Shown here: one piece after another, positions 1,413-15,772 of the stretch
How the letters are laid out: the number at the start of each line of letters is the position of its first letter
Numbering within the stretch: position 1 is the stretch's first letter
DNA from: Puniceibacterium sediminis
Lineage (GTDB): Bacteria; Pseudomonadota; Alphaproteobacteria; Rhodobacterales; Rhodobacteraceae
Length of the DNA stretch: 57,306 nucleotides
Reading direction: 5' to 3'
NCBI RefSeq assembly: GCF_900188035.1
Contig: NZ_FZNN01000022.1
Location: forward strand, 1-57,306
Notes under the pieces: generated by a model
Told to the model about the DNA's origin: nothing
Databases searched by the model: none
What the model saw: the letters and a program-made list of their open reading frames with translations, nothing else
Made by a program: the position numbers and the translations under genes

Positions 1413-1592
1413 ATGATGGCATCGCTTCAAGAAGCAGTTACAACCAAGTTTCTCGAGACACTTGGGGGAGATGAGGCCTTTGATCAATCCAAGACCGTCA
1501 AACTTGAAGCGCTCCTGACTGCGGACGGGAAGATCAAAGTAGACGATCTAACGGCGATCTTCGCCCTCCCGGAAGGAGGCGAGATCCTATGA
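1413..1592 (+). CDS. Small hypothetical protein before the SMC-like ATPase
   Basis: A 59-residue acidic protein starting at the first of two tandem ATG codons, preceded by the purine-rich stretch AGGGAAGGTGG. Its stop overlaps the ATPase start as ATGA (1589-1592), which indicates translational coupling and a fixed stoichiometry with the ATPase. The sequence is two predicted helices with a short linker and ends in LPEGGEIL. There is no recognisable domain. By position it resembles the small middle components that accompany SMC/Rad50-type ATPases in several defence operons, and it may bridge the ATPase to the effectors. That role is inferred only from gene order and coupling. Confidence 0.6.
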   Translation: MMASLQEAVTTKFLETLGGDEAFDQSKTVKLEALLTADGKIKVDDLTAIFALPEGGEIL

Positions 1593-4042
1593 TCAAAATC
1601 GTCTCTGCGCATATCGAAGAGTTTCGCGGCATTAGAAAATTGGACATCAATCTTGATCAAAAGTCTTTTGCGATTTCCGGCCCGAACGGCTCCGGAAAAA
1701 GCGGGGTCATCGATGCGATCGAATTTGCGCTCACAGGTCAGATAAGCAGATTGACCGGAACGGGAACTAAAGGGCTGTCGCTTTCTGATCATGGGCCGCA
1801 TGTAGACCACATTAAGTTTCCAGACGCGGCATTTGTAGAGCTCGAGGTGAATTTTCCGACACTTGGCAAGAGCGCCAAGCTGACCCGAAAGGTTTCTGCG
1901 CCCAAAAAGCCGAAAATAGAGCCGAATGATCCGGACATTGTATCTATATTGGATGTGGTTGCTCAGCATCCCGAAATTACTTTGGCGAGACGGGAGATTT
2001 TGAAGTTCATTCTGGTCGAACCAACGAAACGCTCTGCACAAATTCAAGAGATTCTGAAAATCGATGAGCTGGGCCAAACCCGTTCGGCGCTACACACTGC
2101 ATCTAGCAAACTCAACCGGGCCGCGATGGCAGCGGAAAAGGATACGCAGGGCAAGAAGAACACACTGCTGCAGCACTTGGGCATCGCGTCGCTGTCTGCA
2201 GCTGAGATGCTGGGAGCAGTGAATGCAAAGCGCGAGCTGCTTGGCCTCGCGATCCACGATGCCATGACGGCCGAGACAATCATTGACCAAGGCTTGGCAG
2301 AGCCCAATGATGAACAATCGCTCAACAAACTTGCCGCACTGATAGAATTAGACAAGCTCACCAAGATGATTACTGGGCTTGATCAGGTAACGTCGCCAGA
2401 CGCAGAAGCCCTTGTTGTTCTAATCGAACAACTTGAAAATGACGCACAGCTTCTTGTTTCATTGCAGCAACGCGAGTTGGTGGAGCGCGGATTGAAGTTG
2501 GTGGATGGCCCTGCATGTCCGATGTGCGACCACGAATGGCCAGATGAAGCACACCTTCTTTCACATCTGCACGAAAAGCAGCAGAAATCGAAAGCGGCTG
2601 GGGAGCTAAAGCAGAAACTCACGGATCATGCAGCATTGCTCTCCACGAATGTGGGTAGCCTGAAGGCCTTATTGCTTGAAACACATCGCATCGCGAAGGT
2701 TGAGAACGCGGCCGACATGCTGGCTAGCGTGATCGCATGGGGTAAAGATTTGGCCGTTCTACAGGAACGGCTAAAGTCATTTTCAACGATATTGGAGCTC
2801 AAGGATCGCCTAGCATCCGGATGGTCGGCTATTCCCGAAGACTTCGAAACCAAGCTGAAAGCTTTTGTAGAGGCGATCCGTGCGAAACCCGATCAGTCAG
2901 CAACCTTGGCCGCGCAGAGTTTTTTGATCAATGCGGAACAGAGATTTAAGGACTACAAAGGGGCCCGTAAGATTGAGAAAAATGCCCAAAAGGCCCATGA
3001 GGCCGGGAAAATCGCTTATGACGCTTGGTGTGCTGCAATGGAGTCCGAACTCGATGCGCTCTATGAGGCTGTCGAGGATGACTTCAGCAATTTCTACCGC
3101 GTCTTGAATGATGGCGACGAGCAAAAATTCGTTGCCCGCTTTAAGGCCACAGAAGGACGTCTCGACTTCGACGTGAACTTTTATGAGCGGGGTCTCTTCC
3201 CACCCGGAGCCTTCCATAGCGAGGGTCATCAAGATGGGATGGGTGTGTGTCTCTACCTTGCCTTAATGAAGCGTCTCCTCGGCAACAACTTTACCGTCGC
3301 GCTGCTCGATGATGTTGTGATGTCGGTCGATGCAGACCATCGATATCAGTTCTGCAAGCTGTTGATGACAGAGTTCCGAAACACGCAGTTTGTGATTGCG
3401 ACGCATGATAAAGTTTGGGCAGAGCAGATGCGATCAGCAAAGTTGGTGACGCGAAAGACGTCGATGGTATTTGACAGTTGGTCGGTCGATACTGGGCCGT
3501 TGGTGGAGTCGAACCCAGAGATTTGGGCGGAAATTGATGCAGCTTTGGCCAAGGGCAAGGTCGAAGTTGCAGCTCCGATCTTGCGTCGTCACATGGAATT
3601 TGTGTCGCGCCTGCTTGCGGATCAACTGGGAGCACAGACGGTCTTCAGAGCTGACAACAGCTACGATCTCGGAGGGCTGTTACCGAGTGCTATGTCTCGG
3701 TTGTCAAACCTTTTGGGAAAGGCAGTCGACTCGGCGCAGTCTTGGGGTAACGAGGACCAAAAAACCAAAGCATATGCTCGCAAAAAACGGCTCAAGCAAG
3801 CCAATACCCAAAAGGGCGAAGACGACTGGACGGTCAACAAAGCGGTGCATTTCAATGAATGGGCCAATTTCAGTCCGAACGACTTCAAGCCCATTGTTCA
3901 GGCGTTCAAGGATCTTCTGGCCTGCGCGCAATGCGATGACTGCGGATCATGGCTCTACATCACGCCCAAAAGCATTTCTCCAGAGGGTCTCCGGTGTTCT
4001 TGCAACCTTGTGAACTTAAACCTCAAGCAAAAACCTAAGTAA
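1589..4042 (+). CDS. SMC/Rad50-like ATPase with zinc hook and C-terminal zinc ribbon
   Basis: An 817-residue protein. The N-terminal ATPase half has the Walker A motif GPNGSGKS at residues 31-38. A long helical, coiled-coil-like middle is broken by CPMCDHEW (C310/C313), a Rad50-type CxxC zinc hook. The second ATPase half has Walker B VALLDDVV with D574/D575. After this ABC-type head come about 200 further residues, ending in C779-A-Q-C782-D-D-C785 and a C803-S-C805 pair that look like a zinc ribbon. Members of this superfamily act on DNA ends or sense nucleic acids, and shorter relatives drive Septu, RloC and other phage-defence systems. Here it is coupled to a 59-residue protein and follows HEPN and ART-like genes, so a sensor or motor of a defence complex is likely. 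No nuclease domain was recognised in it. Confidence 0.8.
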   Translation: MIKIVSAHIEEFRGIRKLDINLDQKSFAISGPNGSGKSGVIDAIEFALTGQISRLTGTGTKGLSLSDHGPHVDHIKFPDAAFVELEVNFPTLGKSAKLTRKVSAPKKPKIEPNDPDIVSILDVVAQHPEITLARREILKFILVEPTKRSAQIQEILKIDELGQTRSALHTASSKLNRAAMAAEKDTQGKKNTLLQHLGIASLSAAEMLGAVNAKRELLGLAIHDAMTAETIIDQGLAEPNDEQSLNKLAALIELDKLTKMITGLDQVTSPDAEALVVLIEQLENDAQLLVSLQQRELVERGLKLVDGPACPMCDHEWPDEAHLLSHLHEKQQKSKAAGELKQKLTDHAALLSTNVGSLKALLLETHRIAKVENAADMLASVIAWGKDLAVLQERLKSFSTILELKDRLASGWSAIPEDFETKLKAFVEAIRAKPDQSATLAAQSFLINAEQRFKDYKGARKIEKNAQKAHEAGKIAYDAWCAAMESELDALYEAVEDDFSNFYRVLNDGDEQKFVARFKATEGRLDFDVNFYERGLFPPGAFHSEGHQDGMGVCLYLALMKRLLGNNFTVALLDDVVMSVDADHRYQFCKLLMTEFRNTQFVIATHDKVWAEQMRSAKLVTRKTSMVFDSWSVDTGPLVESNPEIWAEIDAALAKGKVEVAAPILRRHMEFVSRLLADQLGAQTVFRADNSYDLGGLLPSAMSRLSNLLGKAVDSAQSWGNEDQKTKAYARKKRLKQANTQKGEDDWTVNKAVHFNEWANFSPNDFKPIVQAFKDLLACAQCDDCGSWLYITPKSISPEGLRCSCNLVNLNLKQKPK

Positions 4043-4063
4043 CCGCACAGACCTCTAAAGATT

Positions 4064-4446: not shown

Positions 4447-4452
4447 GCTACC
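4447..4452. repeat. Left target-site duplication GCTACC
   Basis: GCTACC immediately precedes the left inverted repeat of the insertion sequence and is repeated immediately after the right one at 5512-5517. A 6-bp duplication is normal for the IS481 family. Confidence 0.9.
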
Positions 4453-5511
4453 TGTTCCATCCCGGATGATCATGCTTCCCCTCGGCGATCAGCCCTGTTC
4501 ATGGCAAGATCGATACTGAGGGACGTTCGGGACGGGGTGCGACCATGTTGATCCATCTTCATAGCCAAGCGACGACGACGCCCAAGGTTCGGTCGGCCAT
4601 CCAGGCCAGTGACGAACCTGCTTCGGTTCTGGCAGAGCGATACGGGACGACGGAACAGACCGTCTACAAATGGCGGCACCGCGACGGCGTCGAGGATCGC
4701 AGCCACACGCCGCACCGGCTTCAGACTACATTGACGCCCGTTCAGGAGGCCGTAGCGGTCGCCTTGCGTCGGTCTCTTCTGGTATCGCTCGATGACCTGC
4801 TGGCTGTTGTGCGCGAGTTCCTGAACCCGAATGCCTCGCGTTCTGGCCTGGACCGCTGCCTGCGTCGGCATGGCGTGGGAAGCCTGCGCGATCTGAAGGC
4901 CAAAGCACCGAGGCCGAAGCACAGCACCTTCAAAGCCTATGAGCCCGGCTACATCCACATCGATGTGAAATACCTGCCGCAAATGGCCGATGAAAGTTCC
5001 CGCCGCTATCTCTTCGTGGCAATCGACCGCGCGACCCGCTGGGTCTTCATCCGCGTCTTTCAGACCAAGACTGCGGCCAACGCCCGGCGCTTCCTGCGCG
5101 ATCTGGAACGCGCTTGCCCGCTGCGCATCCGCACGGTTTTAACCGACAATGGAAAAGAGTTCACTGATCGCCTCTTCGGCCTGCGCAAGCGCGCCGCGAC
5201 CGGCGGGCATGAGTTCGACACGTTGTGCGCCGCCCTCGACATCGATCATCGGTTGACCCCGCCGAAGTCGCCCCAGACCAATGGGATGGTCGAGCGGTTC
5301 AACGGACGCATCGAGGAGGTCCTGCAAAGTCACCATTTCCGATCAGGCGAAGATTTGGAGACGACGTTGCACCGGTATGTCTGGCTCTACAACCAGCAAC
5401 TTCCGCAATCAGCCTTGGCCAGCAAGTCGCCCTTGCAGGCGATGAAGGACTGGCACAAACTCAAGCCAGAGCTGTTCAACAAACAGCCATACTACCTCCC
5501 GGGATGTGACA
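4453..5511 (+). mobile_element. IS481-family insertion sequence, 1059 bp, intact
   Basis: The left end TGTTCCATCCCGG (4453-4465) and the right end CCGGGATGTGACA (5499-5511) are imperfect inverted repeats that begin TGT and end ACA, as in IS481-family elements. Six-base direct repeats GCTACC flank the element exactly. It encodes one full-length DDE transposase. The exact duplications mean this was a simple transposition, recent enough that neither flank has decayed. Closing the element would restore a single GCTACC in the sequence joining 4452 to 5518. Confidence 0.9.
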
Positions 5512-5543
5512 GCTACCTTCTCATAGGTAATGCGACTATTTAA
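4545..5543 (+). CDS. IS481-family transposase (DDE integrase core)
   Basis: A 332-residue transposase. The N-terminal region contains a helix-turn-helix (residues about 25-45, ASVLAERYGTTEQTVYKWR). The integrase-core catalytic triad is visible as the aspartate in YIHIDVKYLP, the aspartate in VLTDNGKEFT, and the glutamate in SPQTNGMVERFNGRI. These are the classic IS481/IS3-type signatures, and the length is normal for IS481. The open frame runs through the right inverted repeat: residues 323-332 are encoded by the target duplication and host DNA, and the stop TAA lies outside the element. With the canonical NCTAGN target the frame would stop at TAG within the duplication. All catalytic residues are present, so the enzyme is probably active. 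Confidence 0.92.
   Translation: MLIHLHSQATTTPKVRSAIQASDEPASVLAERYGTTEQTVYKWRHRDGVEDRSHTPHRLQTTLTPVQEAVAVALRRSLLVSLDDLLAVVREFLNPNASRSGLDRCLRRHGVGSLRDLKAKAPRPKHSTFKAYEPGYIHIDVKYLPQMADESSRRYLFVAIDRATRWVFIRVFQTKTAANARRFLRDLERACPLRIRTVLTDNGKEFTDRLFGLRKRAATGGHEFDTLCAALDIDHRLTPPKSPQTNGMVERFNGRIEEVLQSHHFRSGEDLETTLHRYVWLYNQQLPQSALASKSPLQAMKDWHKLKPELFNKQPYYLPGCDSYLLIGNATI
5512..5517. repeat. Right target-site duplication GCTACC
   Basis: Matches 4447-4452 exactly and abuts the ACA end of the right inverted repeat. Confidence 0.9.
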
Positions 5544-5587
5544 TGATGAAGTCCTAAAATACATAACTGCGGAATGGAGTTCATCTA

Positions 5588-6277
5588 ATGGCAGTCAGGC
5601 GTTCTTTTGAACAGCGACATAAATATCTGTTTGGCACTAAGGGCCTTAGAGAGGATGATTATTTGTACATTTCTAAGGTACTGAATCGGTATGGAGCCGA
5701 GGTTATTTATCAAGCCGGAGAATTTGAGTTTTCGACAATAGAAGAACTTGTTGGATTTTGCAAAAAAAAGCAGTGCAATACGTTGCTTGCACTTGGCACC
5801 CTTTCAAAGGGAAAAATAAGGTTCTCTCTCATCATAGGGGGAAGCATGAGTATATGGGAAGTAGACAACCCAACTAACGCTTCGCCCGAAGAGGCTGCAA
5901 TTTCAGCTCAAACATTCAATGAAATCAAGGCGAGGTTAAAGCAGCGGTATGACTTCATCCCGGGATTTCCTTGGCATGTTGCTAGAAACACATTGGTTTT
6001 GCTACCTTTGCTTTTACTGTCCAGCACAGTTCTCGTTCCATCACGAGCACCTGAAACAAATTCGATCTTTCAAATTACGCTTTCAGTAGCTTTCATCCAT
6101 TACACTTGGGCATGGGTAGAGCGACGTCGGTGGAACAAAAGTATTTTTGTTCAGCGAAGTCCCTTGGCTTTAAGATTAGTCAAGATGTGGCCCGAAGCAC
6201 TTTTAGTCATATTTGGAGCTGCTTTGGGACCTATCTGTAATTTTCTTCTCAAGCTAGTCGCTGAGAAAATTCTATAA
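5588..6277 (+). CDS. Hypothetical protein with C-terminal membrane segments
   Basis: A 229-residue protein starting at ATG 5588 with a GGAG-type site upstream. The first 130 residues are soluble and charged. The rest has three likely membrane segments: around NTLVLLPLLLLSSTVLV, around IFQITLSVAFIHYTWAW, and around ALLVIFGAALGPICNFLL near the end. I recognise no family. The gene is clearly more AT-rich than the genes beyond 14 kb, which suggests recent transfer. It stands alone between the insertion sequence and a kinase-like gene. A membrane-anchored effector with a cytoplasmic sensor domain would fit the architecture and the island setting, but this is inference. Confidence 0.6.
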   Translation: MAVRRSFEQRHKYLFGTKGLREDDYLYISKVLNRYGAEVIYQAGEFEFSTIEELVGFCKKKQCNTLLALGTLSKGKIRFSLIIGGSMSIWEVDNPTNASPEEAAISAQTFNEIKARLKQRYDFIPGFPWHVARNTLVLLPLLLLSSTVLVPSRAPETNSIFQITLSVAFIHYTWAWVERRRWNKSIFVQRSPLALRLVKMWPEALLVIFGAALGPICNFLLKLVAEKIL

Positions 6278-6593
6278 GACACTTTTGCCTTATATCATAT
6301 GGCTATGTTACAAAACGCTCGTTATCGACACGCCTGCAAAACATCCCATTTGACGCTGCCACAAACCCCGTTCAAAACCCAAGCAGTTGTTGAAGGTTTT
6401 TGGCTCGTTCGTGATAGCGGACATCCCAACATCACGCAGCATCGGTCAATTTGGGCTCACTGCCGACCTTCGCTGCACTTGCAAGCGAAATCAGCGTCGA
6501 ACCGGAGGGCGAGCGCCGGCACTGCGGAGGGAGCTGCCGTTGCACTATTTCTACTTCTGGCTTCTTATCCTGCACGACAGGGAGTGCAGGAAC
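6278..6593. other. Gene-free stretch with degenerate repeat
   Basis: No supported gene. Open frames continue upstream of the next gene but start without ribosome sites. The stretch contains the second copy of the degenerate repeat near 6471-6530. A GGGAG-type ribosome site for the next gene lies at its right end. Confidence 0.5.
6471..6530 (+). repeat. Degenerate intergenic repeat, copy 2
   Basis: Related to 4275-4330 through the same ordered blocks: CGCTGCAC, CGAAATC, GGCGAGCG and CGGCACTGCGGA. It lies in non-coding DNA before the first kinase-like gene. Confidence 0.5.
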
Positions 6594-7547
6594 ATGAAAC
6601 TTTGGCCAGACATCTCAATCGCGGAGGACTTCAGGCGGTGGCGGTCTGCCTCGCACCTCTGGTTGCCCGTCGTCATCGAGATTGCGCAAAGGGCAAATAT
6701 AGATGCCGTCTCCCCCACTTCGTTTAAAACCGGCACCAATCTTGTTGTCGATTTGAATGGCAACGCCATCTTAAAAATTTTCCCGCCGATCTATGCCGCA
6801 CAGTTCGCGGCTGAACGACTTGCGCTGCGCCAGCTCGACGGCCGTTTGTCCGTCCCTATTCCCCGAATACTGGCAGAAGGAGAGGACAGCGGATGGTCAT
6901 GGCTGATCATCACCAAGCTGCCCGGCACAGTAGGGTCCGAGGTCTGGCCGGTGCTATCCGAGCAAGAACGCATCTACATTCTGGGCGACATTGGGCGCAC
7001 GATTGCAGAGGTCCAGGCCGTCGATCCCGGAGAGTTGCTTGAGATGCAGCCAGCGTGGCCAGAGTTCGTCAAGCGTCAAGCCGAAGGCTGCATCGAGCGA
7101 CATAGACATCAGGGATTAGAAGAAGCGCTGTTGGCCGAAATACCGGCTCTTCTGCGCGCGGCGCCCTCAGTACTGCCTGCGGAAGTGGAGCCTGTTATCT
7201 TGACCGGGGAATGGATTCCGGAAAATCTGCTTCTGACAGAAACGTCTGATGGCTGGCGGCTAGCCGCTGTCATCGACTTCGGCGACGTGATGACAGGCTG
7301 GCGCGAATACGATCTTTTGGGCCCGAGCACCTTCATGTGTGCGGGCGTCCCCGACCGCCTCCAGGCTTTCTTTAAAGGCTATGGTATGCCTGCGAAGAAC
7401 TATGACGATGCAATGCGGCGACGCCTGACGACACTAATGATGCTCCACGGGGCCAGTGACCTGCGCCACATCGCGATCAGCGACTGGAAGTCCTCCGTCA
7501 GAAGGCTGGAGGATCTTGAAGACATAATCTGGCCCAAGATCCTGTAA
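6594..7547 (+). CDS. Aminoglycoside phosphotransferase-family protein, altered catalytic loop
   Basis: A 317-residue kinase-fold protein. ATG 6594 is chosen because GGGAG lies 9-10 bases upstream; longer in-frame extensions run into non-coding repeat sequence. The fold is recognised from the N-lobe lysine strand ILKIFPP, the hinge segment WLIITKLPG, and the metal-binding strand AAVIDFGDV with D228. The catalytic loop reads T204-G-E206-W-I-P-E-N211 instead of the usual H-G-D-x4-N, so the catalytic aspartate is replaced by glutamate and the histidine by threonine. The metal-binding asparagine N211 is kept. The APH family covers antibiotic, sugar and small-metabolite kinases. The substrate here is unknown, and drug resistance should not be assumed. 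Confidence 0.75.
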   Translation: MKLWPDISIAEDFRRWRSASHLWLPVVIEIAQRANIDAVSPTSFKTGTNLVVDLNGNAILKIFPPIYAAQFAAERLALRQLDGRLSVPIPRILAEGEDSGWSWLIITKLPGTVGSEVWPVLSEQERIYILGDIGRTIAEVQAVDPGELLEMQPAWPEFVKRQAEGCIERHRHQGLEEALLAEIPALLRAAPSVLPAEVEPVILTGEWIPENLLLTETSDGWRLAAVIDFGDVMTGWREYDLLGPSTFMCAGVPDRLQAFFKGYGMPAKNYDDAMRRRLTTLMMLHGASDLRHIAISDWKSSVRRLEDLEDIIWPKIL

Positions 7548-7704
7548 GCACCAACCCTCACGACTGGTGGCTCTGGGCTTATTCCGTTGAAAAGCTCCGC
7601 TACGCGAAAAATAACTCGGAAATTTGGATTTTTTTCGCACCATGGGTGTTGATTGTCATTGAGAACTGACCCCACGGGGGCGGGTTGGACTGACCCAGAA
7701 CAGA

Positions 7705-8097
7705 CATGACCTCTGCCGTCATATCTGGTCGCTCTGGTCGCCTAGCTGGAGTTTTGGTGATGAGACCTGGGGCGCAACGGCCCCCTCGTTCGACAATCCT
7801 GACTTTGTGGAGGTCGTGCTCCATTCCTACCGGCATCGCTTTGGCGGTGTTTCAGGTGATCCGTCATATGACCGAATCGAGGCGCTGCTGGCCGCGCAGC
7901 CGTATATCGCCGTGCCATGCATCGTACTTCAAGGGCAGGATGATGGGGTCGATCCGCCTACAGATGAAGACTTTGACCGCAAACATTTTGCTGAGTTCTA
8001 CGAGCGCAGGATCATAACTGGAGCGGGTCACAACTTGCCGCAAGAAGCACCCACAGCATTCGTCGCTGCGATGCTAACCTTGGCCGGAGCGCAGTAG
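7705..8097 (+). pseudogene. C-terminal fragment of an alpha/beta hydrolase
   Basis: The open frame from about 7705 encodes some 130 residues resembling only the last part of an alpha/beta hydrolase. It begins within a cap-like segment (IWSLWSPSW), continues with FDNPDFVEVVLHSYRHRFG, has the strand and turn with the catalytic acid (VPCIVLQGQDDGV), and ends with the catalytic-histidine loop TGAGHNLPQE. The nucleophile elbow and the whole N-terminal half are missing, and an in-frame stop lies just upstream at 7660. This is therefore a truncated remnant, not a functional enzyme. The break coincides with a sequence (7651-7680) that may be the end of another lost mobile element. Confidence 0.7.
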
Positions 8098-8241
8098 GTC
8101 CAGCGGAGGCCAAAGGCAGCAAAGTCCGCTCACCGGACCCTCGTGCAGGGCGCGCCGCAAGTCCGGTCGGAGCCCACTGCGGTTATTGTCAGAATCTGCT
8201 TTGGGTTGCAAAGTTTGGCTAGGAAGAGTGAAAGGTGATGG

Positions 8242-8952
8242 ATGGAACGACCGCCAATCGAACGCTGGGGCATAGCGGCTGAGCTCGTTCCGCTGGTTGG
8301 GGGACACCGGAACTTGGTGTTCAAGACGGCCGGTCTCGGATTCGGGCGGGAGCTCGTATTCAAGTCTACTCAGCGACCTGAAGCGGCCATGCGCTGGCTT
8401 GCGGGGGTCCAGGAGATCGCTCGGGCGACCGGCTTCGTCGTTCCCGAACAGATGGCGGGCCGTAACGGTCATTTAGTCGAGGAGGGCTGGATCTGTGAAA
8501 ACTTCGTAGAAGGCGAGGCGTTCTCGCCACAAGATGTTCCGTCCGTTCTTCCACTTGTCTTGGCTTTACATGGTGCGACGGCCGGTGTGCCGCAGCGGCC
8601 AGGCTTTCTGTCCTCTCACGACCTAATCCAAGAATCTTATGGCGGGGACGTGGATCTGCGCGCAATGCCCATCGATCTCGTGTCCAGCTGCCGCGAAGCA
8701 TGGCTGACTGTTTCAGAGAGGATGTATGCCGTCATCCATGGTGATCTCAACTCCGGAAACCTGATCAGATGCCCGGATGGGCGTGTCTCTCTGATCGACT
8801 GGGATGAATGCCGCCGCGACCTGGTTTTGTTTGATATCGAGCCGTTGCGAGGGGGCGATGAAGAAGAGCGCAGGGCGCGTCTTGCATGGGAAGTTGCATG
8901 TTCGTGGCTGATAGAACCAGTTCATGCCAGACAGATCGCCACCCGGCTTTGA
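8242..8952 (+). CDS. Aminoglycoside phosphotransferase-family kinase
   Basis: A 236-residue protein with an intact APH-type active site: the catalytic loop VIH166-G-D168-L-N-S-G-N173 and the metal-binding strand SLID186WDE. The N-lobe is short but contains the nucleotide-binding strand ELVFKS. The protein is small for the family (260-300 residues is common), mostly because of the reduced N-lobe and C-terminus. The start ATG 8242 follows GAAAGGTG. The gene stands alone on the island, with non-coding DNA on both sides. The substrate is unknown. Compared with the first kinase-like gene at 6594, this one keeps all canonical catalytic residues. Confidence 0.75.
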   Translation: MERPPIERWGIAAELVPLVGGHRNLVFKTAGLGFGRELVFKSTQRPEAAMRWLAGVQEIARATGFVVPEQMAGRNGHLVEEGWICENFVEGEAFSPQDVPSVLPLVLALHGATAGVPQRPGFLSSHDLIQESYGGDVDLRAMPIDLVSSCREAWLTVSERMYAVIHGDLNSGNLIRCPDGRVSLIDWDECRRDLVLFDIEPLRGGDEEERRARLAWEVACSWLIEPVHARQIATRL

Positions 8953-9311
8953 ACGACAGTCCGAAAAGTCCGCACTGCTGCCGGTCGGCCGTGCTTGAAT
9001 GATGCAGCTGCAGCGAACGGCGGCTCCTGCGCGCGGCATCGCAGGATGAAACGCCGCCAGATCTCGCCAGAAGGCTGAGTTTGCACCGGCTGCTATCTGC
9101 GCGTTGCTGCCGCCGATGCAGGCTGCAGCGTCGAAAGGAGCAGCATTGCCTTGCAGAGCGTCTGCTTCAGGAAAGGTGACCTCGGAATCTCGTGCCTGCG
9201 GCAGAACGGATGCTGCACCAGGTCAAAGGTCCCGAAAGGGCAGACACCGGTAATTCGCCGCATGCGGTGAAAAACCGATAGTAGTCTTGTGTTGGGCACT
9301 TAGGAGCGTTT
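8953..9311. other. Gene-free stretch before the caspase module
   Basis: No supported gene on either strand. The composition is GC-rich, with short CTGCAG- and GCGAACGGCGG-type words like those in the other spacers of the island. A clear AGGAG ribosome site for the next gene lies at its right edge (9302-9306). Confidence 0.5.
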
Positions 9312-9926
9312 ATGGGCAAAATACCGTTCCACTTTCCTGAAGTCGAAATCGGATTCATGGAGGGCTTCACCGAAGCAATCGGCGAAAACGCTCGTGTTTT
9401 GCGCGAACGGTACATGGCACCTGACAACGTCTTGAAGTTCAGTCATGGCCGCACTTGGGAGGCCCCGGCAAACGCCCTTGGGGACACGAAGGGGGAGATA
9501 AATGAGCACAGCACAGAGACGGAACTGAACCTGAAAGACATTGCCGCAGGTAAGGTGGAAGCGGTTTTCGTGGCGGTCTCACAGATTACAGATGATATGA
9601 ATGCCCAAATGGAACGACTGCTTATTGATACGATGACTAGGTCGACAGAGCAAAGCGGGCAAGTTGTTAATGGAGCCGAAAAAACGTTCCCAGAATCGAT
9701 GTACGAAATGCTGGAAATGATGGAGCTGCCTCTGGATGAGGACGGAGAACTGTCTATGCCAACTATGCTTATTCACCCGTCCCAAAGTTCGAAGCTGCAA
9801 GCTCAAATTGAAACTGCTGGTGTGGAATTTGAAAGAAAGTTCTCGGCGCTTAAGGAGAAAAAGAAATCTGATGCTCAAGAACGTGAAAGACAACGCCTTG
9901 CTCGTTTTGAAAGACGTCAGAAGTGA
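9312..9926 (+). CDS. Hypothetical coiled-coil partner of the caspase-like gene
   Basis: A 204-residue protein with an AGGAG site before its ATG. No family is recognised. The N-terminus is aromatic and compact (IPFHFPEVEIGFMEGF), the middle is acidic, and residues from about 160 to the end form one strongly charged helix rich in Lys, Glu and Arg. Its stop overlaps the GTG start of the caspase-like gene by four bases, so the two are co-translated. In known prokaryotic systems a caspase-like protease is often encoded beside a sensor, an inhibitor or its substrate, and this protein could be any of these. The long charged tail could be an exposed segment suited to interaction or cleavage. No function is demonstrated. 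Confidence 0.65.
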   Translation: MGKIPFHFPEVEIGFMEGFTEAIGENARVLRERYMAPDNVLKFSHGRTWEAPANALGDTKGEINEHSTETELNLKDIAAGKVEAVFVAVSQITDDMNAQMERLLIDTMTRSTEQSGQVVNGAEKTFPESMYEMLEMMELPLDEDGELSMPTMLIHPSQSSKLQAQIETAGVEFERKFSALKEKKKSDAQERERQRLARFERRQK

Positions 9927-11818
9927 ATTTTTCAATTTGCATTGCTATCGGGGCCGCGCACTACAAGGATAGTTCGATTTCGAGCCTTCCCGGTGCGACC
10001 GTAGACGCGAAGAATTTCTATGGCGCAGCGACTAACAAGGAATTTGGCACCTGTGATGAAACGCTTTCAAAGCTCTTACTTGATCCGACGAAAGAGGACG
10101 TCAGGGTAGCAGTAGCCGATGCAGTATCAAACCCTACTGTGACAAGCCTGACATTATTTTTCGCTGGGCACGGTGCAGAAACAAAATCGGGCTACTTCTT
10201 GACGTGTCATGATGCCGATGCCAGCCGATTGGCGCTGTCCGGCCTTTCTCTGACTGATGTCTTCCAGCTTCTGAATGAACGCTCCGGTTTGCATACTAAC
10301 ATCGTATTGGACGCTTGCCAGGCTGGCGGAGTTGCAATTGATTTGTCGGCTGTTACAAAAAGCTTTGAAGTCGGTGTCGCAGGTGGGTCTAGTGTATCAA
10401 TCTTAGCCATGAGTTCCAGAGGCGAGGCGGCCCAAGAGGCGTTGGATGGCTCGGGAGGTTTTGGCACGCAAGCGCTGCTAAGAGTGATGAAAGGCGAGGT
10501 AGATACAGGCAAAAACGTTGCGGAACTCACATTGGCGGACATAGCACAAGCCATAGATGTTAGCGAAAACGCCCAAACTCCATCATTCTGGTCGTTTAAT
10601 CTCCAAGGGACATCTGCTTTTTGCAAGAATGCGTTTGCACTGCAATTTCGCGCCGCCGAGGTCTATGAGACGCCAGAAATTTTTAGCGAAGTTCAAGTTG
10701 AACTATCTCAACCGCATCGTGAACAGCTTTGGCAGTGCTACTTAGATTTCCACAAATCCTTAGATACACGAAGAATTTACGACGTCTTGTCAACGGTTTT
10801 AAGTGATGAGGAATATGGAGATTCCGCACCTGCGATACTGTCTGGTCTCTTTGTGAGTTTTCTTTATCGGTCTCACACTTCAGATGATGCCTTTGCGCCT
10901 GTTCTGCTCACATCTGTATTTTCGATGATAGCATCTGAAAAACTGCAAAATTTGCAACTATCTACTCATTTCGTCAAAGTGCTTTCGGAAGAGCTAGAGC
11001 GCACTTTGACTGAACTAGCCGATGATCTAGATTCGGATGACTTGTTTTTGGTGCGCGGAGGCGGCGGCTACAGTGAGTTTTTTACCCTGCCGCAACGTAT
11101 CTCTAGCTTAGCAGCATGGTCGCTTGTGGCTGCTCGAATTTCCGTCCTAGCCGGAGTTGATCCCACCGACTCTTCGGAGACTTCACGCCGAATACTTGCA
11201 GCGTTGTCGAGAGATTATATCGAATCGTTTAACTTGATGAGTGAAAGGCAAGCTGCTGCAATATCTGTAGTGTGTGCGCTTGGAAAAGACTTTGATGATT
11301 GCTGGGTTGAGATGTTCATAGGATGCCTCTACAATTCATACCTTGAGAACAGCGGAAAAATCGCACGCGTCGACTTACCCGCTGACAAGGCGTTTCCCTT
11401 CTTGATGCAGCGCACTTCAACTGAAAAAGCAGACTTTCAAGAGTTTTGCGAAAGACCATCTGAAGCGTTGTTTGCATTGTTTGCGGCGTTCTGGCACTTG
11501 GGGCTTCTAGAGATAGTCCGATATGATATCGCCGATTTGGACGACGCGGTATTGGGTACATTTATTCCTGAATCATATTCAGCGTTTTCGGAGAAGGTTA
11601 TACGAGACGGCACCAACGTTCATTTCAAGATTGGCTTCGAAGTTTTCACGATATCAGATTTATCCGACTTCTTTGAAAACGAACTAATGCCGCGCGCAGT
11701 GGCGGCTAGCGAAGACCTAAGCGACATAGAGAAGGCGGTCGCAACTTGTGCTACACTTGTATTTCCAGACAGAGTCCCTTGGCATTTGTTTGCTCGGGTG
11801 TCCGAATCCGTCACTTAG
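9923..11818 (+). CDS. Caspase-like cysteine protease (peptidase C14 fold) with long C-terminal region
   Basis: A 631-residue protein starting at GTG 9923, overlapping the previous stop. Residues 1-230 form a caspase-hemoglobinase fold. The first strand is SICIAIGAAHY, followed by LPGATVDAK, a typical 'P-G-A-x-x-D-A' helix start. The catalytic histidine is H83 in FFAGHGAE and the catalytic cysteine C132 in IVLDACQAGG. Both dyad motifs are intact, so proteolysis is likely. About 400 residues follow with no recognised domain; they are largely helical and acidic and may be a sensing or oligomerisation module. Caspase-like proteases act as effectors in several bacterial immune systems (CRISPR-linked TPR-CHAT, gasdermin operons). 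The coupled partner, AT-rich composition and island location make this pair a good candidate for a compact defence or toxin module. Confidence 0.8.
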   Translation: MNFSICIAIGAAHYKDSSISSLPGATVDAKNFYGAATNKEFGTCDETLSKLLLDPTKEDVRVAVADAVSNPTVTSLTLFFAGHGAETKSGYFLTCHDADASRLALSGLSLTDVFQLLNERSGLHTNIVLDACQAGGVAIDLSAVTKSFEVGVAGGSSVSILAMSSRGEAAQEALDGSGGFGTQALLRVMKGEVDTGKNVAELTLADIAQAIDVSENAQTPSFWSFNLQGTSAFCKNAFALQFRAAEVYETPEIFSEVQVELSQPHREQLWQCYLDFHKSLDTRRIYDVLSTVLSDEEYGDSAPAILSGLFVSFLYRSHTSDDAFAPVLLTSVFSMIASEKLQNLQLSTHFVKVLSEELERTLTELADDLDSDDLFLVRGGGGYSEFFTLPQRISSLAAWSLVAARISVLAGVDPTDSSETSRRILAALSRDYIESFNLMSERQAAAISVVCALGKDFDDCWVEMFIGCLYNSYLENSGKIARVDLPADKAFPFLMQRTSTEKADFQEFCERPSEALFALFAAFWHLGLLEIVRYDIADLDDAVLGTFIPESYSAFSEKVIRDGTNVHFKIGFEVFTISDLSDFFENELMPRAVAASEDLSDIEKAVATCATLVFPDRVPWHLFARVSESVT

Positions 11819-12156
11819 CATCGAAACAGGAAGCACAATGACTTTAGACGTCTTGGCAACGAAATTCCTTAGCGTTTATAACTCTTTGCGCTCCTAATCT
11901 GGAAATACCTTCTACGGATGGGCCTTCTCGACGTTCTGACGTTGGCCCTGCCGTCGCCCTCACAGAGCGTCAAAGACGTTTTGACCGGGGAAGGGCTAGG
12001 CGACCTTGACCTTGCCCGTGGCGGCGCACTTGGGGGCATTTCTCGCCACCGACCGGCCTACTGTCGCGGCCCTGTGCGAACACCCAAACGAAGCTTCCCT
12101 GCGCGCCAAGAGCAACTGACGCCGGTTTGCATTCTCGGTCGCAACCATGTTGTCAT
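11819..12156. other. Gene-free stretch between caspase and orphan gene
   Basis: No supported gene. An ATG at 11838 opens only 18 codons. The open frame on the plus strand at 11918-12160 has a biased composition and no family features. The GC content rises sharply here relative to the caspase gene, so this is probably a junction between DNA segments of different origin. Confidence 0.45.
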
Positions 12157-13260
12157 TTAGTAGAAAGTGAGCAATCGCAGCACTTTGTTATCGGGCCGAT
12201 ATTCCAAAGCGGCCATAAGGCGAAATGGCTCTCCGTCTTCGCCCGGCACTTCAATGACTATGCTGAACTTGGTGACGTTGTGTTCTGCAAGATACGACAT
12301 ATTGTATATGTAGTTGGATCGCAGTTTCCCACGGATTATTTCCTGCAACTCTTGAGTCGAAACACCGCTAAGACCTGCATGGTGAAGCGAACCTGCTTTA
12401 GCCGTTTTGATATATCCAAGCTTTGCATCTTCAACCTGAACGTCGAACCCACCCAAAGTTGACGGCGAAGCGTTCACCGAATTGATTGCCATTTCTCTGT
12501 CGGCTTCAAAGCCGTCGAACACAGGGCTTTCAATCTTGTAGGACAGCAACACGCCCTCCAAGTCTGAGCGAACGCTAATACACTCATAGCCGTTTTCTTC
12601 GAAGGGCATTCCCGACATGTTCACGTTGTCCGAGTCGTCGCGGTCGTCTTCGTGTCCTTGAATGATCTTTCTGCCAGCCTTCACGCAAAGATTAACCAGC
12701 TTCATTGAAAGAAGCGTCTTGAAGAAGGAATGATAGGTCGTGTTTGCGCAACCCACATACGGTTCATAGGCTATCAGACCGTCCGCAAGCTTTTGGAACG
12801 CAGTATCCGTCAAGTTGTTGATGTAGACCACGTAGAATTGGCTGCTATGCCGGTAGTCGATGCGACGCACTGGGCAAACCGCCTCGCAGAAGGCTTCATA
12901 CAGGGTCTCTTGTTGGCTGTTGCTTCCGATGTAGTCGCCAACCAAAATGCTGTTCTTCGTTCTTGGATCGAGTAGCGGAATGATGCGTTCGAACACTTGG
13001 TAGCCATACCAGCTATCTTCAATCCGCATCGTGTCGAAGATCAAAGCTATCTCAAGCTTTTCGCGGTCGGGCACTAACGCTGCTCGCAGGTCGTCGTAGT
13101 TGATGCCCTTAGACTTCAATGTTCGTGCAATTTGCGCACGCATCCCCTGTATCTCAAGCAGCATCCGATCCGGGGACAGCCCAAAGTAGTCGCGAATAAC
13201 CTCTAGCATCCCGTTGCCGCGTGCGTTCAGGGTATGGATCGGTAGAATTTCTGATGCCAA
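12157..13260 (-). CDS. Orphan hypothetical protein next to tRNA-Ser
   Basis: A 367-residue protein. Its start is TTG at 13260, supported by AGAGGTG seven bases upstream. I recognise no family. The N-terminal region is helical with alternating acidic and basic residues, the middle contains aromatic strands (SSQFYVVYINNL), and the C-terminal third is strand-rich and ends in KVLRLLTFY. There is no signal peptide or membrane segment. It lies about 100 bases downstream of the tRNA-Ser 3' end in the same direction, the slot usually held by a tyrosine integrase in tRNA-borne islands, but no R-H-R-Y integrase signature is visible. It may be a defence or cargo gene left after integrase loss. Confidence 0.65.
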   Translation of the reverse strand: MASEILPIHTLNARGNGMLEVIRDYFGLSPDRMLLEIQGMRAQIARTLKSKGINYDDLRAALVPDREKLEIALIFDTMRIEDSWYGYQVFERIIPLLDPRTKNSILVGDYIGSNSQQETLYEAFCEAVCPVRRIDYRHSSQFYVVYINNLTDTAFQKLADGLIAYEPYVGCANTTYHSFFKTLLSMKLVNLCVKAGRKIIQGHEDDRDDSDNVNMSGMPFEENGYECISVRSDLEGVLLSYKIESPVFDGFEADREMAINSVNASPSTLGGFDVQVEDAKLGYIKTAKAGSLHHAGLSGVSTQELQEIIRGKLRSNYIYNMSYLAEHNVTKFSIVIEVPGEDGEPFRLMAALEYRPDNKVLRLLTFY

Positions 13261-13298
13261 TTTATCACCTCTCGCCGCACATCTTACCCTGAAAATCG

Positions 13299-13359
13299 CA
13301 TGGGTAGTTCATGGGTAGGATTGGTCGAGCGCCAATTTATCTAATGAAATCAATGGGTA
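13299..13359. repeat. Three ATGGGTA repeats beside tRNA 3' end
   Basis: CATGGGTA occurs at 13299-13306 and 13310-13317, and ATGGGTA at 13353-13359, directly next to the tRNA CCA end. On the tRNA strand they read TACCCAT. Short direct repeats beside a tRNA attachment site can be arm-type sites of a tyrosine integrase. No integrase gene is present in the window, so the role is inferred. Confidence 0.4.
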
Positions 13360-13360
13360 A

Positions 13361-13450
13361 TGGCGGAGATGAAGGGATTCGAACCCTCGAGACCCTTCCG
13401 GGCCTACTCCCTTAGCAGGGGAGCGCCTTCGACCACTCGGCCACATCTCC
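13361..13450 (-). tRNA. tRNA-Ser (anticodon GCU)
   Basis: A 90-base class II tRNA on the minus strand. The acceptor stem GGAGATG pairs with the 3' segment CATCTCC. The anticodon stem-loop CTCCC-CTGCTAA-GGGAG gives anticodon GCU for AGC/AGU serine codons. A variable arm typical of serine tRNAs follows, then the T-arm GAGGGTTCGAATCCCTTC, discriminator G and an encoded CCA. It reads intact. Its 3' end faces the accessory DNA to its left, so it is the likely insertion point of that island. Confidence 0.97.
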
Positions 13451-13487: not shown

Positions 13488-14006
13488 GGCAAAAATCCCT
13501 CTTTTTGAAATTTGCGCTCCGGGCCTCAAAACCACTCAAAACTGCACTGAGAGGCACAGAACAGCACTGGTTTTGGGCAATATTTGGTCATTTCCCCTCC
13601 GCGGGTTCGCGGCTTTGGGGGCATGGGAAAGCGCTCCGTCACCTGAGCCTCTCGAAGATATTGGGCAAAATTTCCAGTACGGCTTCCGCCTTGACGGGAG
13701 CGATCCAATCTCCTGAACAACAAGAGGTCGCAAGATGACAAGCATTGAACAAACACCCGGATCAGCAAGCGTCGAAGAGTTGAAGGCATATTGGAGAGAA
13801 TACCTTTCAAGAGAACTGCATGCGAGCTCGCCTTGAAGCGAGGCGTGCGTCGCGTCGCGGGTCAATACCCATGGCTGGCGATCTGGGCGGCAGAGCGTAT
13901 GGCGCCCCCCGCGCGCAAGCTGTGGGATGAACCCAAAAAATCACACCTACCCGACAACCGATCCGGGCAATTCATGATTGCACGCTCAAATGCGCCCATC
14001 GCGCCA
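13488..14006. other. Mostly gene-free stretch between tRNA and minus-strand cluster
   Basis: Only one short gene is supportable, at 13735-13836. Downstream of it, 13840-13960 reads on the plus strand as a protein-like segment containing YPWLAIWAAERMAPPARKLWDE without a start, possibly the tail of a decayed gene. An inverted repeat AGGGATT/AATCCCT lies near 13478-13501 and is followed by CTTTTT. Confidence 0.4.
13735..13836 (+). CDS. Possible 33-residue small protein
   Basis: ATG 13735 is preceded by AAGAGGTCGCAAG, a good ribosome site, and opens 33 codons ending at TGA 13836. The peptide is acidic in the middle and helical (SVEELKAYWREYLSREL). No family is recognised. It may be a real small protein or the start of a broken gene, because the sequence after the stop still reads as protein-like in another frame. 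The ribosome site is the main support. Confidence 0.35.
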   Translation: MTSIEQTPGSASVEELKAYWREYLSRELHASSP

Positions 14007-14918
14007 TCAGCGCTGTTTCGGTGCCGGGGCGGCAACCGGTCCGGCACCGCGAATTGACACGAACCGTTTCAAAAGGTCGAACCAGAACGGAGCGCCAAGC
14101 GTCATTGCAAGCGCGGTCAGGAAAATGCCCAGGCCTTTCAGCAGCCAGCCTTGCGGTGTGGTGGGGACGCTCTGGGATACTTCCGGGCCGGACCAGCCGA
14201 AGGGCAGGTCGGCGCGCAGAGTTTCCAGCTTGTCGAGTATCTCTTTGGGCACGGTTTCGTCCACTCGGGAGGTTTCGATGGCGGACACTACGATTTTGTC
14301 GCGCAGTGCATCGTCTTTCCACAGGACGGCGGCGATGTGCAGCGTATCGGCATTCATGGCGGTCGCGACCAGCAGGGCCACCAGGAACGACGTCAGCTGC
14401 ATCCGGCGCTTGTAGACCCCGGTGGCGCGATTCATCACCTGATCGAACCAGTCCGACAAACCGCTTTGCAGGTTTTCGTAGCGCGCTTGTCCGTCGGTGG
14501 CCAAGGTGTCGATGACCGACTTGAGGATCGAGGATTGCGGAACGTGGCCAGCCAGGCCCACGATGTCCAGCGGTGCGTTCCGGGTCAACTCGGCGCCGTC
14601 GATCTTCCCGGTGCCGGACAGCGCGTGCAGCAGTGCGATGGAAAAGGTGTTTGACTCCATATAGCTTGGCGCTCTGTTTCCCTTGGTGGAATCTGGTATG
14701 CCAATGCTGTGACCCAGCGACCGGACCAGCCCCGAGGACCAGAAGGCCGCGTTCACATCGTCGACTTCGATCATGCGCGATACCTCAGAAAACAGTATCC
14801 GTGCGCGCAGGCGCAGCAGCCCGGCAATCGCTTCGTTCGCGCTGGTGCACAACAGGCTGAGCACCAGATAGATAAAGATGAGACCGATGGTGAGGTCGAG
14901 CGTCGAGGACAGGGTCAT
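14007..14918 (-). CDS. Hypothetical membrane protein, end of haloperoxidase cluster
   Basis: A 303-residue protein. The start at 14918 places the first membrane helix (LTIGLIFIYLVLSLLCTSANEAI) at the N-terminus. A second hydrophobic stretch follows at about residues 170-200 (SFLVALLVATAMNADTL) and a third near 270 (GIFLTALAMTLGAPFWFDLL). The soluble loop between the first two contains charged helices. The family is unknown to me. The end QGWLLKGLGIFLTALAMTLGA followed by a positive tail suggests an anchored cytoplasmic C-terminus. It is the last gene of the minus-strand cluster, 54 bases after the previous stop, so it is probably co-transcribed. A membrane adaptor for the secreted or soluble proteins upstream is possible but unproven. 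Confidence 0.65.
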   Translation of the reverse strand: MTLSSTLDLTIGLIFIYLVLSLLCTSANEAIAGLLRLRARILFSEVSRMIEVDDVNAAFWSSGLVRSLGHSIGIPDSTKGNRAPSYMESNTFSIALLHALSGTGKIDGAELTRNAPLDIVGLAGHVPQSSILKSVIDTLATDGQARYENLQSGLSDWFDQVMNRATGVYKRRMQLTSFLVALLVATAMNADTLHIAAVLWKDDALRDKIVVSAIETSRVDETVPKEILDKLETLRADLPFGWSGPEVSQSVPTTPQGWLLKGLGIFLTALAMTLGAPFWFDLLKRFVSIRGAGPVAAPAPKQR

Positions 14919-14972
14919 AGCAGTCTCGCTTTTGCAGAAGGGGGCGGTGCTGAGGCAGCGCAACAAAGCGGA

Positions 14973-15323
14973 TTAGGTGTCTCGGAGCCGCATCAGTGCG
15001 GCTTCCTGCACTTGGTCGATCAGGCCGTGCACGATGGTGTCACCCAGCAGGATGTTCGGTTCGGCGGTTGTGCCCTTTTCCTGGAAGGCGACGCGCGGAA
15101 TCCAAGTCTGCCCGTCGCCTTCGATACCAGTTTGCTCTTCGAGTTGAAGCATACCGAAAAAGCACAGATCGAAGAGAATGCCGGACTGTTCCTCGGTCGT
15201 GGCGTCGACGGAAAAGGTGACAAGGTCAGAGTTCCGAAGCTGGTGCGCGATGGCGGTGACATAGCGGGTCGCGAATTCGGTTGCGACGATCTTGAACCGT
15301 GGGTCATTGCGGTCGATGGGCAT
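14973..15323 (-). CDS. Small hypothetical protein in haloperoxidase cluster
   Basis: A 116-residue soluble protein. The start at 15323 is fixed by a perfect AGGAGG just upstream. It begins MPIDRNDPRF and ends with a helical tail. No signal peptide, metal motif or known domain is visible. The middle has alternating strands (LVTFSVDATTEE, TWIPRVAFQEKG). It lies 26 bases after the DM13-like gene and is probably in the same transcript. Its function is unknown; an accessory or chaperone role to the enzymes of the cluster is only inferred from position. Confidence 0.65.
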   Translation of the reverse strand: MPIDRNDPRFKIVATEFATRYVTAIAHQLRNSDLVTFSVDATTEEQSGILFDLCFFGMLQLEEQTGIEGDGQTWIPRVAFQEKGTTAEPNILLGDTIVHGLIDQVQEAALMRLRDT

Positions 15324-15349
15324 CGGAACCTCCTGAAGCGGGGTGCGGG

Positions 15350-15712
15350 TCAGACCCGGGTGATCGGCGCAAAGCCGAGGATGAAGGGCGTGGCGAAGCA
15401 CCACAAAACGAGGGTGTCAAAGCTGTCCAGATCGGTGCCGGGGTTGATCGTGCCAGAGTGTCGACCGCTGACCGGGACGAGGTTGCCGGGCAGGTTCAGG
15501 AACCGTGTCCGCTGCATGTTGCTGCGAAGCACCAGATCATGACGGTCGGTGGGCGTGCCGACATTCAGGCCGAAAGCGGGCTCGGGCGAACCGTCGAAAA
15601 AGAAATCGTCGCTGGTCTGCATCACGACGTCGCCGTCTTGGCGGGTCAGTGTGTAGGTGCCGCGCAGAACGTGCGGCATACCGGGGGTGAAAGAGCCTGT
15701 GGCGATGAGCAT
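15350..15712 (-). CDS. DM13-like domain protein
   Basis: A 120-residue protein made almost entirely of strands. It starts GSFTPGMPHVLRGTYTLTRQDGDVVMQTSDDFFFDGSPEPAF and ends DSFDTLVLWCFATPFILGFAPI. This resembles DM13 domains, which have an early 'G-x-y-x-L ... dF' strand pair and a late cysteine-containing strand (V-x-x-W-C), and which have been proposed to work in redox or electron-transfer reactions. There is no signal peptide. The gene lies 60 bases after the vanadium haloperoxidase stop on the same strand. A redox partner near a haloperoxidase is attractive but speculative. Confidence 0.55.
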   Translation of the reverse strand: MLIATGSFTPGMPHVLRGTYTLTRQDGDVVMQTSDDFFFDGSPEPAFGLNVGTPTDRHDLVLRSNMQRTRFLNLPGNLVPVSGRHSGTINPGTDLDSFDTLVLWCFATPFILGFAPITRV

Positions 15713-15772
15713 CGCGTCCTCCTGTTCGGTGTGAAAGGCGGTCGGCCCGAGGGCTGGGCCGACCGGGGTGTA

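What the first reader, a model, noticed from the sequence alone, without database searches (positions are those of the whole stretch)
9312..11818. Caspase-like protease with an overlapping partner gene: candidate two-gene immune module
Seen: His83/Cys132 dyad in a C14-type fold, a 400-residue unknown C-terminal region, and a 204-residue partner ending in a long charged helix with a 4-base gene overlap. Known: bacterial caspase-like proteases execute cell death in several immune systems. Inferred: the C-terminus may sense infection, and the partner may be substrate, inhibitor or sensor.
Basis: partly seen in the sequence, partly recalled or inferred. Interest (0 to 1): 0.85.

Follow-up and report, generated by a model that had tools for sequence, protein, structure and literature searches.

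The report
Caspase gene pair with swappable executioner
Two overlapping bacterial genes, a caspase-like protease and a small partner of no recognised family, are inherited together in distant relatives, and elsewhere the same partner family sits with a DNA-cutting-type enzyme instead, which points to a rare immune-type switch whose weapon can be exchanged; its function is untested.

Summary
In detail: ORFs 9312-9926 (204 aa) and 9923-11818 (631 aa) overlap by GTGA, and the second has a Peptidase C14 domain with His83/Cys132 plus about 400 unassigned residues. The pair is real. In 4 of 4 full-length caspase relatives found elsewhere (Roseovarius, a Sulfitobacter plasmid, a fecal 'phage' scaffold, an IMG/VR contig) the partner lies directly upstream with the same 4-nt overlap; the dyad is conserved in 5 of 5. 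The unexpected result: in 5 other loci the same partner family precedes, with a 35-44 nt overlap, a Mrr-like PD-(D/E)XK nuclease-type protein instead. So one small constant component is paired with either of two unrelated effectors. Its last ~120 residues are shared between types; its first ~84 diverge. The module lies in a low-GC island ending at tRNA-Ser with a LmuB-like ATPase. Best reading: a rare, mobile, probably abortive-infection-type module whose constant component gates the effector. The shared partner makes 'partner = caspase substrate' less likely. It works like EACC1-caspase systems but fails the defining features tested. Immunity, activity and binding are untested, and the C-terminal regions of the two effector types are not significantly related.

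The parts
9302..9306 (+). AGGAG, Shine-Dalgarno-like, before the partner gene
   Evidence: read in the sequence
9312..9926 (+). partner gene, 204-aa constant component of no recognised family (P0001)
   Evidence: ORF; homologues in 9 other loci; dN/dS 0.09
9312..9563 (+). partner residues 1-84, which diverge between effector types
   Evidence: mean identity between types 10.8%
9564..9923 (+). partner residues 85-204, shared by both effector types, ending in the charged helix
   Evidence: mean identity between types 21.7%; helix 171-203
9923..9926 (+). 4-nt overlap GTGA of the two genes
   Evidence: NTGA in 5 of 5 caspase-type loci
9923..11818 (+). caspase-like effector gene, 631 aa (P0002)
   Evidence: ORF; dN/dS 0.17 against L002
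9935..10600 (+). Peptidase C14 (caspase) domain, residues 5-226
   Evidence: PF00656 46.1 bits, cut-off 21.4
10169..10171 (+). His83 codon of the catalytic dyad
   Evidence: H in 5 of 5
10316..10318 (+). Cys132 codon of the catalytic dyad (Asp130-Ala131-Cys132)
   Evidence: C in 5 of 5, Asp130 in 5 of 5
10625..11815 (+). C-terminal region, residues 235-631, of no known family, conserved in 5 homologues
   Evidence: drawn mostly as helices in a low-confidence model
1589..4042 (+). context: SMC/LmuB-like ATPase in the same low-GC stretch
   Evidence: PADLOC LmuB E 5.6e-25, SMC_N
13361..13450 (-). context: tRNA-Ser(gct) at the edge of the low-GC stretch that carries the module
   Evidence: ARAGORN; GC profile

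Best explanation
This is a rare, horizontally moving two-gene conflict module, probably anti-phage and probably acting by killing or arresting the infected cell. The small upstream protein is the constant, soluble control component: its last ~120 residues do the same job in both versions (trigger sensing and/or oligomerisation), and its first ~84 fit the particular effector. The downstream protein is the executioner. Here it is a caspase-like protease, predicted to cut after Arg/Lys because it has the metacaspase-like Asp-x-Cys arrangement (recalled knowledge), tied to a ~400-residue region that keeps it inactive until the control component reports a trigger. In sister modules the protease is replaced by a Mrr-like PD-(D/E)XK nuclease. 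Shown: co-inheritance, gene overlap, conserved dyad, one partner family with two effector types, signs of mobility. Inferred: binding, gating, trigger, cell death, anti-phage role.
For: 4 of 4 new full-length caspase relatives have the partner with an NTGA overlap. 4 of 4 new loci found with partner profiles have an overlapping nuclease-type gene next; a fifth was reached from the nuclease side. Partner homology across types: the caspase-type profile hits three nuclease-type partners at 1.7e-15, 2.5e-14 and 2.8e-6, best of 6000 shuffles 0.22; hhalign probability 99.2%. The five caspase-type partners are one side of a branch, support 96/96. GC 48.2% against 59.6% for the window, in a stretch ending at tRNA-Ser. 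Defence-type neighbours: LmuB-like (window), GajA and GajB (L028), HamB-like (L038), PD-T7-1 (L041). Mobility genes near L036, L024 and L041. Precedents: caspase CanA was obtained as a soluble complex with CanB, and CanABC protects against T4 (PMC12799240, section 8 read); a caspase-like effector acts in type IV Thoeris (PMC12847820, passages read).
Against: No functional data. Neighbours for the family scans were chosen by eye and there was no control set, so a defence-island enrichment was not measured. L031, L032 and L051 sit beside genes that look like ordinary chromosomal ones by eye. The C-terminal regions of the two effector types are not significantly related (hhalign P 0.11), so a shared docking surface for the partner is not shown. 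Both structure models are poor (mean pLDDT 49 and 47). Only 10 loci are known, and the Pfam Mrr match was obtained for 1 of 4 nuclease-type proteins scanned.
Confidence: 0.55

Rival explanations
1. Toxin-antitoxin-like pair: the partner is a neutraliser that binds and silences a toxic protease (or nuclease); loss or inactivation of the partner frees the enzyme. Its benefit may be stabilisation of the island or plasmid as much as defence.
For: Small upstream gene overlapping a downstream enzyme gene, translationally coupled by arrangement; island, plasmid and mobile-element settings; one neutraliser family with exchanged toxins is compatible with the two effector types.
Against: The effector has a long conserved region beyond the catalytic domain, more than a simple toxin needs (inference). 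No known antitoxin or DNA-binding family matches the partner.
Confidence: 0.25
2. Protease-substrate pair: the partner is the protein that the caspase cuts (a pro-effector), and the cut product kills or signals, as CanC nuclease in Canu or gasdermin in gasdermin modules.
For: The precedent of proteolytic activation in Canu (PMC12799240, section 8 read); the partner's charged C-terminal helix offers many Lys/Arg sites.
Against: The same family pairs with a nuclease-type effector without a caspase in 5 loci. The part shared between types includes the Lys/Arg-rich helix, so its conservation is not explained by caspase cutting. No enzyme or membrane-type segment in the partner.
Confidence: 0.1
3. 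Non-immune regulatory protease module (stress, development or plasmid maintenance) with no role against phages.
For: No phage experiment exists; three of ten loci sit beside genes that look ordinary by eye; orthocaspases are studied in other roles (search listing only).
Against: Very rare and scattered: partner in 1 of 295 family genomes, the own one; low GC and island setting; defence-type genes near four loci; alternative nuclease effector.
Confidence: 0.1

Closest known systems
EACC1-caspase two-gene systems (Kaur et al. 2020, PMC7159879, passages including section 33 seen)
   Same: 5' small constant component followed by a 3' protein with an N-terminal caspase domain; predicted conflict system; exchange of modules. 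[quoted passage not shown]
   Different: EACC1 is a single-TM-helix domain; our partner has no TM-like segment and no family match. There the caspase is mostly constant and the C-terminus highly variable; here the C-terminus is conserved in 5 homologues. NF047832 score 64.6, cut-off 140.
Canu caspase-nuclease defence, CanABC (PMC12799240, outline and section 8 read)
   Same: Caspase plus a partner (CanB) with which it forms a soluble complex; defence-island and transposase setting reported.
   Different: Canu has a separate downstream MBL-fold pro-nuclease, and CanA has an Ig-like domain; neither was seen here. Our nuclease-type version replaces the protease and is not paired with one. CanB's sequence was not compared.
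Type IV Thoeris, TIR plus caspase-like effector (PMC12847820, passages seen)
   Same: Caspase-like protease as immune executioner.
   Different: Uses a TIR protein that makes N7-cADPR; no TIR domain was found in the proteins scanned around the module.
Mrr-type PD-(D/E)XK restriction nucleases (effector of the sister modules)
   Same: GKD...Q-x-K motif readable in 5 of 5 sister effectors; Mrr_cat E 1e-4 on 1 of 4 scanned.
   Different: Long unassigned C-terminal region and an overlapping partner gene.

Membership tests
Peptidase C14 (caspase-like) family | Significant match to the C14 profile | tested here: met
   PF00656 46.1 bits, cut-off 21.4; whole-genome search 48 bits
Peptidase C14 (caspase-like) family | His-Cys catalytic dyad | tested here: met
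   His83 and Cys132 in 5 of 5 homologues
Peptidase C14 (caspase-like) family | Proteolytic activity | not testable with these tools
   needs biochemistry
EACC1-caspase system | 5' component is an EACC1 domain with one conserved TM helix | tested here: not met
   no Pfam match at E<=1 for P0001; highest 19-residue Kyte-Doolittle mean 1.06 among 8 partners. I did not check that this Pfam copy holds an EACC1 model
EACC1-caspase system | Caspase of the EACC1-associated type | tested here: not met
   NF047832 64.6 bits against a cut-off of 140
EACC1-caspase system | Constant caspase with variable C-terminal domains | tested here: not met
   C-terminal region alignable end to end in 5 homologues
Canu (CanABC) | Linked MBL-fold nuclease gene | tested here: not met
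   no such Pfam match among the window proteins scanned around the module; small ORFs were not all scanned
Canu (CanABC) | Ig-like domain after the caspase domain | tested here: inconclusive
   only Peptidase_C14 in P0002 at E<=1; the low-confidence model is mostly helical
Type IV Thoeris | Adjacent TIR-domain gene | tested here: not met
   no TIR match in the neighbours scanned
Gasdermin-protease modules | Adjacent gasdermin-fold pore protein | tested here: inconclusive
   partner has no Pfam match and no TM-like segment; its fold is unresolved
Toxin-antitoxin systems | Toxic effector neutralised by its partner | not testable with these tools
   needs expression tests; gene order and overlap are compatible
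Mrr-like PD-(D/E)XK nuclease (sister effectors) | Match to the Mrr catalytic profile and catalytic motif | tested here: inconclusive
   Mrr_cat in 1 of 4 members scanned, E 1e-4; motif readable in 4 of 4 aligned and in the fifth
Anti-phage defence system | Protection against phage | not testable with these tools
   needs phage challenge

The most novel reading that the evidence does not exclude
An undescribed family of small soluble control proteins forms a 'socket' for exchangeable executioners: one branch drives a caspase-like protease, the other a DNA nuclease, with the control protein's N-terminal part re-fitted to each. The long C-terminal regions of the two executioners may be one very diverged scaffold: the two profiles align end to end over 329 columns, though not significantly. 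This would be a new immune architecture in which one sensing mechanism ends in either proteolysis or DNA cleavage.
Probability: 0.4. Interest if true: 0.75.

Novelty: new variant of a known kind. Interest (0 to 1): 0.62.

Why it matters
Caspase-like proteases execute several described bacterial immune responses, but how they are switched on is known for few. Here one partner family is paired with a protease in one branch and a nuclease-type protein in the other, a natural experiment: what is common to both pairs should be sensing and control, what differs should be execution. If confirmed, comparison of the two kinds of pair in laboratory strains could show directly how a bacterial caspase is controlled, which also bears on the origin of caspase pathways.

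Tried and rejected
Searching for close relatives of the caspase in genome contigs gave one locus; that scan uses exact short peptides. Plasmid, phage and whole-genome searches gave the rest. Viral-contig scans with A2, A1, A6, P0004, the L028 caspase and the L041 nuclease found no relative. A4 found L036 and L037, and a repeat with the L036 caspase found only those two contigs, 100% identical over the matched part, so they count as one locus. tblastn of nuclease-type effectors gave nothing in phages; in plasmids only the Rhodococcus record turned up, and the L041 nuclease found none. The L036 partner found no plasmid.

C-terminal homology between caspase and nuclease-type effectors: not established. 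hhalign with 4 against 2 sequences, and hmmsearch and hhalign with 5 against 4, gave nothing. With 5 against 5, hhalign gave an end-to-end alignment (329 columns, P 0.11, probability 0.5%). Of 60 column-shuffled controls 59 gave an alignment; 1 scored as high and none aligned as many columns; the reversed profile scored 13.1 against 20.5. Leave-one-out runs kept 275 or more columns in 6 of 10 cases, P between 0.02 and 0.43 over the ten. A lead, not a result.

EF-hand resemblance of the partner (troponin C, best E 0.056): set aside as chance; only the glycine of the loop is invariant in nine partners. WD-40 hits of the nuclease profile (E 0.001): set aside, a 43-residue match with no stretch passing on its own. 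Foldseek of the poor caspase model: 0 of 558 matches at E<=0.001, the top one caspase-8 at E 0.025; taken only as agreeing with the C14 assignment. The partner model was not searched.

The second pair on CP144550 (offset 331,180 in a 349,750-base record, same scores) is probably an untrimmed circular overlap and was not counted. The tRNA-Ser end has a second match in the genome, but it is another tRNA-Ser gene, gga, not an attachment-site copy.

Not followed: the 22 other family genomes and the 7 other plasmid records that match only part of the caspase. In the same draw of 295 family genomes the partner was found only in the window's own genome, so those caspases lack a partner that a single-sequence search can detect. 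Paper searches for a prior description showed none in their listings, but the library holds open-licence PMC papers only and cannot be searched by sequence.
Full report
WHAT IS THERE. The window has two overlapping genes on the + strand: 9312-9926 (204 aa) and 9923-11818 (631 aa, GTG start), joined by GTGA. A Shine-Dalgarno-like AGGAG precedes the first; none is obvious before the second, so translational coupling is likely (inference). The second product has a Peptidase C14 domain in residues 5-226 (PF00656, 46.1 bits, cut-off 21.4), the only C14 match found in the genome (69 contigs, 99.8% complete). Its remaining ~400 residues match nothing in Pfam at E<=1. NCBIfam's EACC1-associated caspase model matches below its cut-off (64.6 of 140 bits), PADLOC's 'caspase' model weakly (E 1.1e-5), and two PHROGs of unknown function weakly (E 6e-4 and 2e-3). 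The partner has no recognised family: no Pfam match at E<=1, and over nine partners the best NCBIfam and Pfam E-values are 0.0078 and 0.062, each for one member only. Eight partners tested have no membrane-type segment.

THE PAIR IS CONSERVED. Full-length relatives of the caspase were found in Roseovarius aestuarii (L002, 82% identity), on Sulfitobacter pontiacus plasmid pls1 (L024, 38%), in a fecal scaffold deposited as 'Bacteriophage sp.' (L028, 27.6%) and in an IMG/VR contig (L036, 29%). In 4 of 4 the partner lies directly upstream, and the junction is an NTGA overlap in all 5 loci, the window included. Partner and caspase identities to the window's proteins run in parallel: 81 and 81%, 46 and 38%, 25 and 27%, 28 and 27%. 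His83, Asp130 and Cys132 are invariant in 5 of 5. Between window and L002, dN/dS is 0.09 for the partner and 0.17 for the caspase (0.10 for residues 1-235, 0.24 for the rest).

THE PARTNER HAS A SECOND EFFECTOR. A profile of four caspase-type partners, run on 385 genomes of the window's class, hit 3: the window's own and two others (E 1.4e-14 and 8.2e-10). In both new loci the partner is followed by an overlapping gene for a 540-550-residue protein with a readable PD-(D/E)XK motif and no caspase match. Further searches added G899 (own plus 1 of 398 phylum genomes; effector) and G1200 (1 new of 210 genomes of G899's order; effector). All four genomes are of the window's class, by inference Alphaproteobacteria. 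A Rhodococcus qingshengii plasmid, reached from the nuclease side, has the same arrangement, annotated 'hypothetical protein' then 'restriction endonuclease'. The overlaps are 44, 35, 44 and 35 nt, and 35 nt in G1200. Pfam Mrr_cat matches 1 of the 4 nuclease-type proteins scanned (E 1e-4), and PADLOC matches none of the 2 scanned. That makes 10 loci, 5 of each type. Searches in the families of G333 (10 genomes) and G433 (3 genomes) added nothing new.

HOW SURE IS THE PARTNER HOMOLOGY. A profile of the five caspase-type partners scores the first three nuclease-type ones at E 1.7e-15, 2.5e-14 and 2.8e-6 (the last is Rhodococcus), against 0.22 for the best of 6000 shuffles. The reverse search gives 3.9e-15 to 1.4e-11, best shuffle 0.018. 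The two later ones score 53.3 and 41.1 bits. Profile to profile, hhalign gives 99.2% probability. In a tree of 10 the caspase-type partners are one side of a branch, support 96/96, present in 93% of 200 bootstrap trees, so one exchange of effector suffices; several rows are long-branched. Mean identity between types, measured on nine partners, is 10.8% in residues 1-84 and 21.7% in residues 85-204: the first part goes with the effector, the second is common.

RARITY AND CONTEXT. In the window's family the partner was found in 1 of 295 genomes, its own, although 23 of 295, own included, have some match to the caspase protein. The caspase C-terminal profile hit 1 of 398 phylum genomes, the own one. 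The module has 48.2% GC in a 59.6% window. It lies in a stretch whose 1-kb GC values run from 0.48 to 0.59 up to position 13,000; from 14,001 to 22,000 they run from 0.61 to 0.66. The step is at tRNA-Ser(gct), 13361-13450, and a Pseudorhodobacter turbinis plasmid matches from the tRNA rightwards only. The same stretch has a LmuB-like ATPase at 1589-4042 (PADLOC E 5.6e-25) and a transposase at 4545-5543. Among neighbours that I selected by eye (20 proteins or partners, across five of the ten loci), L028 has GajA and GajB, 2.4 kb away, L038 a HamB-like helicase and L041 a PD-T7-1 gene. Mobility genes are near L024, L036 and L041. L002's contig is too short to tell. L031, L032 and L051 sit among genes that look ordinary by eye and were not scanned. 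There is no control set, so this is context and not enrichment.

STRUCTURE. The caspase model finds caspase-8 first in the PDB, at a non-significant E of 0.025, and its C-terminal region is drawn mostly as helices. No solved structure matches the caspase profile by sequence at E<=0.01. The C-terminal regions of the two effector types are not significantly related, though the best alignment runs end to end.

MECHANISM. Shown: consistent pairing in every locus examined, conserved catalytic residues, one partner family with two effector chemistries, signs of mobility. Inferred: the partner binds and gates the effector, a phage or plasmid signal releases it, and the cell dies or stops growing. The exchange of effector argues that the partner is a control component and not simply the protease's substrate. 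The Asp-x-Cys arrangement suggests cutting after Arg/Lys, as in metacaspases (recalled, not tested). A neutraliser (toxin-antitoxin) role for the partner is the strongest rival.

AGAINST KNOWN SYSTEMS. The logic (5' constant component, 3' enzyme) is that of the EACC1-caspase systems (PMC7159879, passages seen; EACC2 in PMC8195603, passages seen). The EACC1 features tested are not met: no TM helix, caspase model below cut-off, C-terminus conserved and not variable. Canu (PMC12799240, outline and section 8 read) shows that a bacterial caspase can form a complex with a partner and defend against phage T4; its MBL nuclease was not found among the proteins scanned here. No TIR gene of type IV Thoeris was found (that system known to me here from passages of PMC12847820). 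I file the gene pair as a caspase-family effector in a new variant of the constant-component, exchangeable-effector kind.

VERDICT. Immune function is likely but unproven.

Noticed in passing
window 1-13450: Low-GC stretch (1-kb values 0.48-0.59 up to 13,000) ending at tRNA-Ser(gct) 13361-13450, as in a genomic island; its other end lies beyond the contig start. No integrase was seen among the proteins scanned.
   Followed up: partly
window 1589-4042: SMC/LmuB-like ATPase (PADLOC LmuB E 5.6e-25) with a 201-aa ORF of no family just upstream (645-1250): possibly a Lamassu-type system cut by the contig end.
   Followed up: partly
window 12157-13260 (-): 367-aa ORF without a clear family between the module and the tRNA-Ser; possibly another island gene of interest.
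   Followed up: partly
window 6387-7547 and 8242-8952: Two APH-superfamily phosphotransferase-like ORFs near the module (PF01636). The one scanned against NCBIfam is far below the APH(3') cut-offs, so drug resistance is not implied.
   Followed up: no
L024, record CP144550.1: The pair occurs twice in the plasmid record, offset 331,180 bases of 349,750, with identical scores: probably an untrimmed circular overlap of the assembly.
   Followed up: partly
L028, record MT835554.1, 16074-25161: A scaffold deposited as 'UNVERIFIED: Bacteriophage sp.' carries the module next to a Gabija GajA/GajB pair; it may be bacterial or mobile-element DNA and not a phage.
   Followed up: partly
L041, 4490-15726: The G899 nuclease-type module sits near a PD-T7-1 gene, a nucleotidyltransferase-like gene, ArdC and MobC/NikA genes: it looks like a mobile element carrying defence genes.
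   Followed up: partly
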